A stretch of 64,000 bases of DNA. Origin: Flammeovirgaceae bacterium UBA4465. GTDB lineage: Bacteria; Bacteroidota; Bacteroidia; Cytophagales; Cyclobacteriaceae. The stretch lies in NCBI GenBank assembly GCA_905182375.1, contig CAJJBF010000009.1, positions 417,984-481,983 of the forward strand. Reading direction: 5' to 3'. The stretch's first letter is position 1; each line of letters starts with the position of its first letter. The position numbers and the translations under genes are program-made. The notes beneath the pieces are model-generated. The model made no database searches. It saw nothing but the letters and a program-made list of their open reading frames with translations, and had not been told where the DNA came from. This document shows positions 58,596 through 64,000 of the stretch, piece after piece.

Positions 58596-60797
58596 TTATT
58601 CTACCACTAAGGTGCGGATCTCCTGAATCAATTCCCCGGAAGCTGAGAGGCCCATTAACATTACATCATATTCACCAGAGATATCTGAAGTAAATAATTC
58701 GTATTTAGTATTCAAATCTGGATGATTTTTTGTCTTAAATAAAAGCATGGTTCTCCGATCGGGTATCCTTATCTCTCGAGGATCATTATGATTAGGAGTA
58801 TAATATTGTTTTTGCCTTTCCATCCCTTTGTAAATATAATTCAATCCATGAGGCTCAAATCCATATAAATCCTCATCCATGGTCGTAAAAAAAATCAACC
58901 CATCAAGCTTGGCTGGGCCTATATAATAGCGTTCTGAAAGAATTTTTATCGTTTTTATATTAAACGGGGAGTAGGACAGTACTTCTTGAGGACTTGCCAC
59001 CACCCCATCAAAGAGTACCAAATAGATCCCTGTAGGTCTGTAGCCTTTTAATGATTCTGGCCAGCGAATTTCAAAATCATAATCATTATCGGATTTACTG
59101 ATTCCAATCTCGGGAATATATTCAATAAAAGAATCTCTGACGGTTGGGAATCGTGTGTAATCATCAACATTAAAGATTCGAAAATTAATTTCTTTCTTTT
59201 CTTTTTTTTTCGAAGTTAATACCCGGTCATTTTTTAAATGATGGTAAGCATTTTCAACTTGTAAGTGTATACTATTGGCCACAATTTCCTTAACCAAGAG
59301 CGAATCATAATACAAAGGCCAACTCTTTAATTTCGGATATTCCTTATAAAACTCATCCTCTATTTTGATCTCAAATAGATTAGCATCATCATTAAGTACG
59401 CTTATATAAGCCTTTCGGTCCCCATCAATATATTCAATATTCAATAAGAATCTCCCTGCACTGTCTGACTTAGCTAAACTTAAGCTTTCTTCTTTACCTG
59501 GCACTGAGAATGTAATAATTTGATTTTCAACTGACTGATCTCCATTCGCTTTAATAAACCCCTGCAGTAAGTCATTTCTATATTCAGGTAGGTAATCAAA
59601 AGACTTTAATGTGGTGATTTTGGGCCAATCGACCTCTGAAAACATTAACCATGCATTAATATCGTTATATTTTGTCCACTTGGCCTGAAGGGGTGGAGAT
59701 ATTAGCTTACTATTAATTTGATTGAGTCGTAATGACCTCGGTTGCTCTGATTTTTTATTCACCATCATCGTACTGACACTCAAATTTGAATCTAAAACAG
59801 AAAATTCAATATAGCCCCTAGGCACCGATACGAGCTGTTGCTCAGAAAGGTCAGAAAGTCCCCCGTTATAAAATAATCTTTCAGCCATTATCGCCCCTTG
59901 GTTATCTAAGATCTCAGCCCTCAATAATTTGTTTGGTAAACTGACTTTTCCTATTTTGATTGGCTCTCGGAGCTTATTACTCTTTTCAATATATATATTG
60001 TGGCGATCACGTACTCTGAACGATGTTATATTTAATTGACTCTTGGCATGGCTATCTATGAGTTGAAAAGTATATGAGTTCGGCATTTCTTGCATCGAAA
60101 TCGTACTACAATTTTCACAAGCCTCGGGGAGGTCTAAAAATTTAAAGACAGCCCCTTCAGTATAAATCATTTGATAACTTCTCCCCTTCTCAGGAGTAAA
60201 AGAAAATTGAGCCAGCCCATCTACTGAATTAATATCGGCTTGTTTCTCACCTAGGTCATCCACTAATTTCCCTTTAAACGAGACTCCTTGTTCCTGATGA
60301 TCTGAATAACGAACAACTACTTTATTACTCACTCCTTTAACTAATTTTCCTCCCTCAGCATAAAATCTCATTTGCCAATTTGTGATAATTGGCGGAGTAT
60401 AAATTTCAAAAGGGTTATAAATGCTAATCGGAACTCGACAAAAGTCTTTCCTATTTTTCATCCATCGTGTATACGCAACTAAATCATAATTTCCAGACTT
60501 AATCAAAGTAGAAATAAATAAATCTCCTACTATCAATCCGCGCTCTAAGGCTATCTTGGTCTGGTATATAGGATTTTGATTCTCATCCAGTAGTTCAATG
60601 TAAAGTAAAGAACTCAAGCTTGATAGCTTTCCTGTTTTAGAACTGGTAATAAACCCTTGAAAATATATATTCTCCCCAGTCAAAAATTGATTTTTATTGG
60701 TTACCAGTAATACTTCTTCATGAATATTCCCTTGACCGAAAGCAAATAATTGAAAAAAAAGTAATGAAAGGACTATATAGTTTCTAAAAGTTCTCAT
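58596..60797 (-). CDS. Secreted MG2-like protein with TonB-plug-like C-terminal segment
   Basis: A 733-residue exported protein (signal LSLLFFQLFAFGQG); start ATG 60797, not the TTG at 60803. The N-terminal domain (GENIYFQGFITSS, SLLYIELLDENQNP, SGNYDLVAYTRWMKN) matches the MG2-like beta domains of Bacteroidota envelope proteins. Near residues 587-660 is a segment resembling a TonB receptor plug: GIYLVLFDGVVASP, FNIKTIKIL and DGLIFFTT. No beta-barrel follows. Its ATG overlaps the stop at the end of the DUF4249 coding region (ATGA), so it is translated with the receptor genes. Function unknown; perhaps a periplasmic partner of the upstream TonB receptor. Confidence 0.6.
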   Translation of the reverse strand: MRTFRNYIVLSLLFFQLFAFGQGNIHEEVLLVTNKNQFLTGENIYFQGFITSSKTGKLSSLSSLLYIELLDENQNPIYQTKIALERGLIVGDLFISTLIKSGNYDLVAYTRWMKNRKDFCRVPISIYNPFEIYTPPIITNWQMRFYAEGGKLVKGVSNKVVVRYSDHQEQGVSFKGKLVDDLGEKQADINSVDGLAQFSFTPEKGRSYQMIYTEGAVFKFLDLPEACENCSTISMQEMPNSYTFQLIDSHAKSQLNITSFRVRDRHNIYIEKSNKLREPIKIGKVSLPNKLLRAEILDNQGAIMAERLFYNGGLSDLSEQQLVSVPRGYIEFSVLDSNLSVSTMMVNKKSEQPRSLRLNQINSKLISPPLQAKWTKYNDINAWLMFSEVDWPKITTLKSFDYLPEYRNDLLQGFIKANGDQSVENQIITFSVPGKEESLSLAKSDSAGRFLLNIEYIDGDRKAYISVLNDDANLFEIKIEDEFYKEYPKLKSWPLYYDSLLVKEIVANSIHLQVENAYHHLKNDRVLTSKKKEKKEINFRIFNVDDYTRFPTVRDSFIEYIPEIGISKSDNDYDFEIRWPESLKGYRPTGIYLVLFDGVVASPQEVLSYSPFNIKTIKILSERYYIGPAKLDGLIFFTTMDEDLYGFEPHGLNYIYKGMERQKQYYTPNHNDPREIRIPDRRTMLLFKTKNHPDLNTKYELFTSDISGEYDVMLMGLSASGELIQEIRTLVVE

Positions 60798-61999
60798 TCC
60801 CAAAAATCTGGTACTCCAATTTTACCTAATATTCTACAGTCAGAACAGTTTTCCGATGTCATAAAATATAGTTGTAAGTCCGGATCATAAGTCCATATTA
60901 TCATTCTTGCATTTCTATCATCAGTGACATAACCTTCAAGCGCTAATGCTGGAATAGAATCTATACCAATAATATCAATACCACAATAGTCTAGTCCATA
61001 ATTAACTTTGAATCCATCAGAGACAAAAGTTTAATCTACAAAAAATGAAACTTTAGAGGATACTCCTGAAACGTCAAAGTTTCCCATCACCAATTCTTTT
61101 GGATCTGTTAACGATTTTATATTTCCAGAAATATTACCTTTTTGTTTGTCAAATAGTGAGCCTCCAGATTCATTGTTTTCCTTCAGTCGTTTATAATATT
61201 GATAAGTAGCATTAGACAACGCATATTGCTTAACCTTCACTGCTGTCTTAAAGGATAAATTCTGATCATTCTCATTAATGAAATGGATAGGGAATTCCGT
61301 GAGTTTGGAGTTATTTAAAGAAAAGGCAGATCCTAATAATAAAGCAGTACTGGTATCTCCTCTAAAGCATACCTCCACACTTTGTAAATCCGTCATTTTT
61401 CTTTGTATGGCTGCTCCTATCTTGGGTACATAAACGTATTCTGAGGGGTAAGGAACTCTCCATTCATAGGTTTCTTCCCAGACATATCTGAACGTACTTA
61501 CTTCATAATCACTCCAATCACTTTCTATAAATAGTTGGACTCCATTTAATAATTCAGCACTCTTCTCTGAGGGTAATTGAACATATCTTCCGTATAAGGT
61601 ATCAATAGGAGGTGCTTCATTTAACACTTCTTCAGAAGATAGATATTCATGGCCATTTTTTATCTTAATTCTCAATCTATAGCTTTGACCCACAATACCT
61701 CGATAAGTCGAAGAAGTTACATAATTTCCAGGATGTCTTTCTGTCAATGTGACCGCATCACCGTCACTGGTCTCAATGATTACAGTGGCCTCATTAATGG
61801 TTGTTAGATTTGTGATTCCTAGTCCAGAGGTATAGGATAACCTCACACTGTGGGTTTTTTCTTCATTGGTTAATAACCCATCTACCACTATCAAAGGTGG
61901 GCCAACTTCATGAATCAGTTCATATTCATAGGGTTCTATGCAAGAAAAGGCAATAACTAAAATTAATAAATGAATTTTATTTTTAATCTCTAACCTCAT
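60794..61999 (-). pseudogene. DUF4249 lipoprotein with in-frame TAA
   Basis: A DUF4249 protein (lipobox IAFSC) of 401 codons if an in-frame TAA at 61031-61033 is ignored. The codons after TAA continue as TFVSDGFKVNYGLDYCG and end CSDCRILGKIGVPDFWE, which fits the usual DUF4249 C-terminus. The next in-frame stop TGA (60794-60796) overlaps the ATG of the following gene, and the start ATG overlaps the receptor stop. The frame is unchanged on both sides, so one base substitution would restore it. DUF4249 proteins are outer-membrane lipoproteins encoded with TonB receptors; the function is unknown. Confidence 0.75.
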
Positions 62000-64000
62000 A
62001 TTTTGAAATTGAAGGTAATTGTAGGAATTGGATTTGAAAATACTGTCATTTTATAGCCCTCAACATCTCCATCAACGGTCTTAAAAAAAATCGAATACAC
62101 ATTATCCCTACCCAAAACATTATAAATCGAAAAGGTCCAGAACGAGTGGCCCAATTTTTTTATTTTATGCGTCCCTTCTACATCAAATCCTATGTCAACT
62201 CTGAAATAATCAGGAATACGAAAAGCATTTCTATTCGAATAGAGCAGGCTTTCAGCATTATTAAATTTCCACTTCCCAATGGGATATGTAACCGGCCTTC
62301 CACTTGAGTAAATCAAGTTTAAGGATAAACTGTACCTTCTTGTAAATTTATAATTAGTTACCAAATTTAAATAATGTGGCTTATCATAATTAGTCTCGAA
62401 AAAAGCCCCTCCATTGACCCGTTCCTCAGAAAAATTTCCATTTAAACGGATAAAACTTCGTGACCATGTATAATTGAACCAGCCTGTAAACCATCCATCA
62501 GACTTTTTTGCGGACAGCTCCAATCCATAAGATTTGCCCTCTCCTTGAAGCAAATCAGTCTCAATATTTTTATTGAATTGCAAATCTGCACCTACTTTGA
62601 AATCCACTAAATTCTTAATTAATTTGTAATAGCCCTCAACTGAAAACTCTAGCACATCATTTCCAAGGATGTTTTTGTAATACCCAATTGAAAATTGATC
62701 CGCTATTTGGGGCACCAAATATTTACCCGACAATCTCCAAATGTCAGTAGGTGCTAATGAAGCAGAATTAATGAGCATGTGAATATATTGTCGAGACCTA
62801 TTATAGCTCATCTTCAAAGAACTTAGATTTGGAAGAGAAAATCTACCCGATAATCGCAATTCAGGACCATGATAGGTAGCCATTGACGCCCCTTTTTCAT
62901 ATGAAAGCGTATCAGTAATAAAATCTTTGTTTAAGGGTTTATTAAGGGCATATTGATATGATTCTGAAGGACCTAACCGGGTATATAAAGAATATCTTAA
63001 CCCTGCGTAAAGTGAAAGACTTTTTGAAGGATCATATTGATTAGAAAAATAAATTGCTGACTCTAGGGCTTGTTCGGGATTAATCTTATCATAACCAATA
63101 TCAGATAGTTCCCCCAAGGGTTCTCGAATCCCCGGATTGATCTGATATTTTTTTGTATTAGTACCAAAGTTTAAATGATTTTTATCATTCATATAATAAT
63201 AATTACAGTCCCTGCCCATTCGGAAATATCATAATTAATTTGAACTAAATAATTTTCCAAAACCAATATCATAGCGATATTGACTACCCGTAAGCCTCAG
63301 GGATCCATCAAAGTCATCGTTGAATTTTCGCATCCAATTTACAGAAAAGTTTGAATTAGTATAACTGAAATCAGAATAGCCAAGCAATGAGTCAGAACTC
63401 AATTGAAAACTATCAAAGCTGTAATAACTTGAAGCCGAAAGTGTATTTTTTTCATCTATTTTATGATCCAATTTAATCATCAAATCATGGAAAACAGCAT
63501 TTTGATTGCCCAGCGGAGAGTTTCTTATTTGTTTGAGTACAAAATCAGAATAAGTTGCTCTTCCCCCCAACATGAGCGATGTTTTATCTTTTATAATAGG
63601 CCCTTCAAATAAAAGACTCGAAGTGATGGGTCCTAGACCGGCTTTGACTGAATACTTTTCTTTATTGGGTTCTTTAGTCGTAATGTCAAATACAGAAGAA
63701 AGACGCCCCCCATATTTAGCTGGAATCCCTCCCTTAAAAAGTTCCATGCCCTCTAAAACCTCTGAATTAAATATAGAAAAAAATCCAAAAAAATGTGATG
63801 TGTTATATACGGTAGCTCCATCGATTGTAAAAAGATTTTGATCTGCTTTGCCCCCTCTTATATTAACCCCTGCGGCACCCTCTCCAACTGCTTGGACTCC
63901 TGAAGTTGTTATCGCTGACTTAACGATGTCCCTTTCACCCAAAAGGGTAGGCAAATTTTTAGTCTCTTCAATCCCTAACCTTGTGACCCCCATTTGGGTC
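61996..64000 (-). pseudogene. TonB-dependent receptor, 5' end outside window, paired indels
   Basis: Outer-membrane receptor; the start is beyond the window. The plug domain has GVNIRGGKADQNLFTIDGA, ELFKGGIPAKYGGR and SSVFDITTKEPN. The barrel follows with alternating aromatic strands and ends VFSNPIPTITFNFKI. The frame has two stops at 63226-63237, but frames on both sides agree in phase. The bridging text INYDISEWAGTV lies in another frame, so two compensating indels within about 45 bases (near 63237 and 63195) are inferred. The plug type is the FecA/CirA-like Bacteroidota class with DUF4249 partner rather than SusC. The ligand is unknown, possibly metal complexes or peptides. Confidence 0.8.

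What the first reader, a model, noticed from the sequence alone, without database searches (positions are those of the whole stretch)
58596..64000. Coupled trio: TonB receptor, DUF4249, MG2 protein with orphan plug-like domain
The three genes overlap by ATGA at both joints. The third encodes an MG2-like domain plus a segment with TonB-plug features (LVLFDGVV, IKTIKIL, GLIFFTT) but no barrel. A free plug-like module translated in step with a receptor is an unusual design. It could occupy or remodel a receptor, or act as a periplasmic adaptor. The system has no assigned substrate.
Basis: partly seen in the sequence, partly recalled or inferred. Interest (0 to 1): 0.6.

Follow-up and report, generated by a model that had tools for sequence, protein, structure and literature searches.

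The report
Macroglobulin-like protein carrying a receptor plug
The third gene of this operon encodes a protein built like the front half of an alpha-2-macroglobulin with a TonB-receptor plug set into it; it belongs to a conserved but almost undescribed outer-membrane uptake system, of which two genes are broken in this particular genome.

Summary
Largely confirmed, with corrections. Gene 3 (58596-60797, minus, 733 aa) has an MG2 domain and a real barrel-less plug domain. A profile of the plug stretch alone finds only SusC/RagA-type receptors among solved structures (8 of 8 hits), and 26 of 61 relatives match Pfam Plug. The whole protein is predicted to fold like the MG2-MG6 part of alpha-2-macroglobulin/complement. 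It aligns end to end (E=9e-87) with the front half of ~1,540-aa Bacteroidota macroglobulin-like proteins, two of which carry a Pfam Plug between the bait-region domain and the A2M domain. So the plug sits where bait region or anaphylatoxin normally sits (inferred). The trio is conserved: 76 of 80 related loci, usually with a fourth, unknown gene (62 of 80). DUF4249 proteins beside gene 3 carry a C-terminal CxxC tail that unlinked ones lack. A sister genome has four other lesions; two congeners have lost the operon. Likely role: periplasmic accessory subunit of a DUF4249-lidded transporter. Substrate unknown.

The parts
58596..60797 (-). gene 3: 733-aa MG2...plug...MG protein, signal-peptide-like N terminus without lipobox; ATG at 60797
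60417..60731 (-). MG2-type domain (residues 23-127)
   Evidence: Pfam PF01835 in 37 of 61 family members; PDB sequence hits at its position are complement C3/A2M; hhalign E=3e-32 to Bacteroidota A2M-like proteins
59358..59597 (-). carboxypeptidase-regulatory-like beta domain (residues 401-480)
   Evidence: hhalign to the same domain of the trio receptor E=1.6e-7; CarboxypepD_reg in 8 of 61 members
58863..59177 (-). barrel-less TonB-receptor plug-like domain (residues 541-645)
   Evidence: plug-only profile: all 8 PDB hits are SusC/RagA-type receptors; Pfam Plug in 26 of 61 members; hhalign with controls
58599..58748 (-). C-terminal beta domain (residues 684-733), equivalent of the second half of MG6
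   Evidence: hhalign to A2M-plug protein columns 882-929 E=3.8e-11; structural alignments end there (MG6 boundary recalled)
60794..60797 (-). ATGA overlap between DUF4249 second piece and gene 3
60794..61999 (-). DUF4249 lipoprotein gene, interrupted
   Evidence: PF14054 E=1.4e-36 on the first piece 61031-61999; no internal stop in G001 and G003
61031..61033 (-). in-frame TAA, codon 323 of 399, absent from both close relatives compared
60794..61030 (-). severed DUF4249 C-terminal tail with the CxxC...P.FW motif
   Evidence: CxxC in the last 45 aa of 70 of 70 picked DUF4249 proteins of gene-3-linked loci
61996..61999 (-). ATGA overlap between receptor and DUF4249
61996..64000 (-). TonB-dependent receptor, interrupted, continuing past the window (to L004:6763); STN/FecR_C-like, CarboxypepD and Plug domains in the intact orthologue
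63201..63248 (-). receptor lesion: net 8-nt and 4-nt deletions flanking a frame-shifted stretch with stops

Best explanation
Gene 3 encodes a secreted, non-lipidated (so probably periplasmic) alpha-2-macroglobulin-like scaffold, truncated after MG6, with a barrel-less TonB-receptor plug domain at the bait-region/anaphylatoxin position. It is the dedicated accessory subunit of a DUF4249-lidded TonB-dependent transporter, made from one operon with a receptor bearing an STN-like domain, a lipoprotein DUF4249 with a special CxxC tail, and a fourth small secreted protein. Shown: operon, domain homologies, predicted fold, co-divergence, tail association, and lesions in this genome. Inferred: the periplasmic site; the surface site and lid role of DUF4249; that gene 3 docks on the periplasmic face of its receptor and uses the plug-like domain, together with the carboxypeptidase-regulatory-like domain that it shares with the receptor, as docking surface while the receptor opens. 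In the window's own genome the system is probably defunct or failing.
For: Trio in 76 of 80 loci, 71 with all three on one strand. Gene 3 and receptor distances co-vary best: r=0.865 over 55 loci, against 0.767 with DUF4249 and 0.664 with the fourth gene; partial r 0.65-0.75. Plug homology with controls. A2M/complement fold: pLDDT 87, pTM 0.87, best Z 16.0. Colinear with Bacteroidota A2M-like proteins, E=8.7e-87. The plug is among the better conserved regions (mean majority frequency 0.49; MG2 0.53; residues 227-540 0.33-0.37), so it is not simply decaying. No lipobox in 74 of 78 gene 3 proteins, while 78 of 112 DUF4249 proteins have one. DUF4249 as receptor partner is proposed in print for BT2172/BT2173 (passage of PMC11003636).
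Against: No interaction, localisation or transport datum. The DUF4249 tail association could mean gene 3 acts on the surface side, or just a shared lineage. Co-divergence also follows from co-inheritance in one operon. Most DUF4249 loci lack gene 3 next door (50 of 57 sampled), so it is not generally required. Four of 78 gene 3 proteins match the lipobox script. The window's own plug segment gives no Pfam match.
Confidence: 0.42

Rival explanations
1. The plug-like domain is an inherited structural module of a macroglobulin family and has no plug function; gene 3 works as a peptide or protein catcher (trap or chaperone) in the periplasm downstream of the receptor.
For: The plug also sits in two ~1,548-aa A2M-like proteins with TED domains, so it may have come with the scaffold; the fold is A2M-like.
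Against: The domain is conserved above the middle domains; gene 3 lacks the TED domain, so no covalent trapping; linkage to a receptor is near-constant in the sampled loci.
Confidence: 0.25
2. Gene 3 acts on the cell surface with DUF4249, the CxxC tail of DUF4249 being its binding partner.
For: Tail and gene 3 go together: 70 of 70 gene-3-linked loci with a picked DUF4249; in a DUF4249-led sample of 57 loci, 6 of 7 gene-3-adjacent proteins have the tail and the 7th is the window, whose tail is cut off by a stop; of the 50 others the script flagged two (L161, L190), in both of which it had picked a wrong ORF.
Against: Gene 3 mostly lacks a lipobox (74 of 78) and has no obvious surface-export signal by eye; shared ancestry alone may explain the association.
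Confidence: 0.2
3. The lesions are assembly artefacts of a draft genome and the window's operon is intact.
For: The genome is a draft of 20 contigs; the receptor lesion is a patch of mismatches plus indels, and G001 has ambiguous bases at the same place.
Against: Six flanking genes are open in the same three genomes; G003 has different single-base insertions in the operon genes; G004 and G009 keep only a 3' scar of gene 3.
Confidence: 0.2

Closest known systems
BT2172/BT2173-type TonB transporter with DUF4249 partner (Bacteroides)
   Same: Receptor and DUF4249 in one conserved operon (passage of PMC11003636).
   Different: The system here adds gene 3, a small fourth gene and a CxxC tail on DUF4249; 50 of 57 DUF4249 loci sampled by Pfam lack gene 3 next door.
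Alpha-2-macroglobulin / complement C3-C5 family
   Same: Predicted MG2-MG6 fold; colinear with Bacteroidota A2M-like proteins that have TED domains.
   Different: Ends at MG6: no TED or receptor-binding domain; about one MG domain fewer after MG2 (gap); a plug instead of bait region or anaphylatoxin.
SusC/RagA receptors
   Same: Plug domain: all 8 PDB hits of the plug-only profile.
   Different: No barrel in gene 3; the partner receptor's intact orthologue in L035 had no OMP_RagA_SusC match at E<=0.1.
815-aa paralogue in the same genome (L005:8585-11032)
   Same: MG2 (E=0.011) plus C-terminal Plug (PF07715 E=1.7e-8).
   Different: No receptor/DUF4249 operon around it (by eye); clearer plug.

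Membership tests
TonB-dependent receptor (gene 3) | plug domain | tested here: met
   no Pfam match for the window protein's own segment
TonB-dependent receptor (gene 3) | C-terminal transmembrane beta-barrel | tested here: not met
   only about 90 residues follow the plug; no barrel family match; model ends in an MG-like domain
TonB-dependent receptor (gene 3) | TonB box | not tested
   none seen by eye before the plug; no dedicated test
Alpha-2-macroglobulin family | series of MG domains in A2M order | tested here: met
Alpha-2-macroglobulin family | thioester (TED) domain | tested here: not met
   no PF07678 match; alignment ends before TED
Alpha-2-macroglobulin family | bait region cut by proteases | not testable with these tools
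   position is taken by the plug (inferred)
DUF4249-partnered TonB transporter | receptor followed by PF14054 protein | tested here: met
   both interrupted in the window genome
DUF4249-partnered TonB transporter | DUF4249 acts as lid in transport | not testable with these tools
   proposal known only from the passage and the title of the preprint cited there

The most novel reading that the evidence does not exclude
A macroglobulin whose trigger segment has been swapped for a receptor plug: where A2M is triggered by protease cutting of its bait region, this protein would be triggered when its plug domain engages, or is displaced from, the receptor barrel during TonB-driven opening, so that the MG scaffold changes shape and takes over the incoming substrate. 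That would be a mechanically gated, barrel-sensing relative of complement.
Probability: 0.1. Interest if true: 0.88.

Novelty: new variant of a known kind. Interest (0 to 1): 0.58.

Why it matters
It joins two unrelated protein machines, TonB receptors and the complement/A2M family, in one conserved Bacteroidota operon. It defines a sub-class of DUF4249 transporters (gene 3 plus CxxC tail) that can be recognised from sequence alone and tested by deletion in named species such as Marinoscillum furvescens or Reichenbachiella faecimaris, whose loci carry the operon. My searches of the held library for DUF4249 and for macroglobulin or MG2 with plug, TonB or Bacteroidetes terms found no description of the MG-plug protein in what they listed; bioRxiv and most subscription papers are not held.

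Tried and rejected
Rejected: the idea that DUF4249 is frame-shifted; both pieces are in the same frame, separated by TAA. Rejected: a purely chance resemblance of the plug segment; barrel, DUF4249, fourth-gene and canonical-A2M profiles gave no match, whereas receptor-plug and A2M-plug profiles did. The match to the trio's own receptor plug is modest (E=1.4e-4, probability 53%).

Led nowhere: substrate from neighbours. A TRAP-type transporter and rlmN recur only in 10 of the 80 loci, and no neighbour is general. The fourth protein has a good model (pLDDT 88.5) but no convincing fold match (best Foldseek E=0.1, best Z 3.7), which does not exclude a known fold. A plasmid search gave one weak Parabacteroides hit covering 44%.

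A first co-divergence run gave r=0.288 for gene 3 and receptor because in some loci it picked a neighbouring unrelated receptor; it was repeated with a score filter. Both are told. The 80 loci are the best 80 of 200 tblastn-confirmed relatives and were found with motifs of operon-linked proteins, so 76 of 80 is not an unbiased frequency. The DUF4249-led sample (57 loci of the best-scoring matches) gives the other side: 7 with gene 3 adjacent within 1.5 kb of the match. In one search at least four loci (L157, L161, L170, L190) had the wrong ORF picked as the central one; for L157, L161 and L170 one search shows the DUF4249 ORF or its end without the motif (L161 by its sequence's listing is not there in full, so it rests on the locus table and reading by eye), and L190 was not re-read. 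For one search (61 genomes, gene 3 profile) 11 genomes had a match.

Full report
What is there. On the minus strand the window ends with a TonB-dependent receptor (continuing past 64000), a DUF4249 gene and gene 3 (58596-60797, 733 aa). Fetching the genome beyond the window showed a fourth gene directly upstream of the receptor (L004:6736-7527, 263 aa). ATGA joins receptor to DUF4249 (61996-61999) and DUF4249 to gene 3 (60794-60797).

DUF4249 carries an in-frame TAA at codon 323 of 399 (61031-61033); two close relatives, G001 and G003, have no stop there. The receptor has net deletions of 8 nt (near 63248) and 4 nt (near 63201) relative to them; the stretch between is out of frame and holds stops. 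Six flanking genes are open in all three genomes. G003, a sister, has four other lesions: single-base insertions in the fourth gene, twice in the receptor, and in gene 3. G004 and G009 of the same genus lack the operon between rlmN and the TRAP-type genes and keep only a 3' remnant of gene 3. G001, G006, G007 and G008 carry it intact, and G005 as far as its contig reaches. So the system seems to be failing repeatedly in this genus, although assembly error cannot be excluded without reads. Past selection was purifying: dN/dS 0.13-0.27 between G000 and G001 for the four genes.

The plug. Pfam gives the window protein only a weak MG2 match (E=0.026). But a profile of residues 536-662 from 61 sequences, searched against all PDB sequences with E up to 10, returns 8 sequences, all SusC/RagA-type TonB receptors, matched near their N-terminal plugs (best E=7e-4). 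Of the 61 members, 26 match Pfam Plug at E<=0.1; no other family matches more than 2. Domain-wise hhalign: plug region against receptor plug E=1.4e-4 (probability 53%), against A2M plug E=2e-8 (95%), and nothing against the barrel, DUF4249, the fourth protein or canonical A2M.

The scaffold. AlphaFold2 gives a confident model (pLDDT 87, pTM 0.87, 61 sequences). Foldseek and VIA-align list alpha-2-macroglobulins and complement proteins in all rows shown (best Z 16.0; model 25-733 on C5 122-820, model 25-733 on A2M 125-789), that is, up to the end of MG6 (boundary recalled). Long flexible chains give poor overall superposition (query TM-scores 0.11-0.27), so this is a statement about domain types and order. 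In relatives' genomes I found four ~1,530-1,549-aa A2M-like proteins with MG2, A2M and TED domains. Two of the four (L146, L147) hold a Pfam Plug (E=1e-18, 8e-18) between the bait-region-domain match and the A2M domain; L144 and L145 have no Pfam Plug match. The gene 3 family aligns colinearly with this group (E=8.7e-87 over 719 columns) but with canonical A2M only in MG2 (E=9e-4). Gene 3's last 50 residues match the segment after the plug (E=4e-11). Hence gene 3 is the front half of such a protein, with the plug at the bait/anaphylatoxin position: inferred from domain order, not from measured contacts.

The system. Of 80 named loci fetched with a gene 3 alignment (the best 80 of 200 confirmed relatives), 78 have DUF4249, 76 have DUF4249 and the receptor, 71 with all three on one strand, and 62 have the fourth gene too. 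Of the four without a receptor, L088 is a 4.2-kb contig and L097 is cut by a contig end just upstream; L105 and L122 lack both partners. ATGA coupling of DUF4249 and gene 3 occurs in 18 of 74 joints, 50 more have an ATG within 60 nt, and 6 do not. Named members include Marinoscillum, Reichenbachiella, Roseivirga, Hymenobacter, Mucilaginibacter, Marinifilum and Flavobacteriaceae. From the other side, 57 DUF4249 loci (61 and 119 genomes searched, best-scoring loci kept) show gene 3 next door in 7. Those DUF4249 proteins are long (393-431 aa; the window's first ORF 339) and end in a CxxC tail; other DUF4249 proteins do not (after discounting two wrong ORF picks). The same tail is in 70 of 70 picked DUF4249 proteins of gene-3-linked loci. 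The window's premature stop falls just after the Pfam domain (residues 21-316) and removes this tail.

How it may work. DUF4249 is proposed in print as partner of receptor BT2172 (passages of PMC11003636 read; the cited preprint on 'lids' known by title only). DUF4249 proteins mostly carry a lipobox (78 of 112), gene 3 proteins mostly do not (74 of 78), which puts gene 3 most simply in the periplasm. Gene 3 and receptor co-diverge most strongly (r=0.865, n=55). I therefore favour a periplasmic accessory subunit that docks on the receptor through its plug-like and carboxypeptidase-regulatory-like domains. [quoted passage not shown] Rivals are a plug kept only as scaffold, and a surface role with the DUF4249 tail.

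Novelty. Four searches combining macroglobulin or MG2 with plug, TonB or Bacteroidetes terms, and two for DUF4249, found no description of the MG-plug protein; only the 25 listed of 212 papers were seen, as listing. I rate it a new variant of a known kind: a lidded TonB transporter with a macroglobulin-like partner.

Noticed in passing
L146:642-5291 and L147:574-5220 (unnamed Bacteroidota genomes): Alpha-2-macroglobulin-like proteins with TED domain and a strong TonB plug domain (E=1e-18, 8e-18) at the bait-region position; the four-sequence consensus has a GCxEQ thioester-like motif.
   Followed up: partly
L005:8585-11032 (own genome, contig 19): 815-aa MG2-plus-plug paralogue with a clear Plug match, not in a receptor operon.
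   Followed up: partly
window 58596-64000 and flanks: Synonymous divergence G000-G001 is lower in the operon (dS 0.28-0.50) than in six flanking genes (0.58-0.80), which hints at recombination or exchange of the operon.
   Followed up: no
L004:6736-7527 (just beyond the window): Fourth operon gene, 263 aa, no Pfam or NCBIfam match and no convincing fold match although the orthologue's model is confident.
   Followed up: partly
L123:175-7870: Six DUF4249 genes in tandem before a short (~598-aa) gene 3; several Flavobacteriaceae loci have two to four.
   Followed up: no
L069, L073, L075, L113 (Roseivirga): Order changed to receptor, gene 3, then three DUF4249 genes; an ORF that looks by eye like a C39-peptidase ABC exporter recurs near six loci (L069, L071, L073, L075, L079, L123).
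   Followed up: no
L094, L102, L104, L107 (Marinifilum, Ancylomarina): Receptor and fourth gene are on the opposite strand, divergent from DUF4249 and gene 3.
   Followed up: no
L004:8251-10046: TRAP transporter genes (DctQ/M-like, named by eye) divergent from the operon in the genus and a few relatives; they stay where the operon has been lost (L045, L046).
   Followed up: partly
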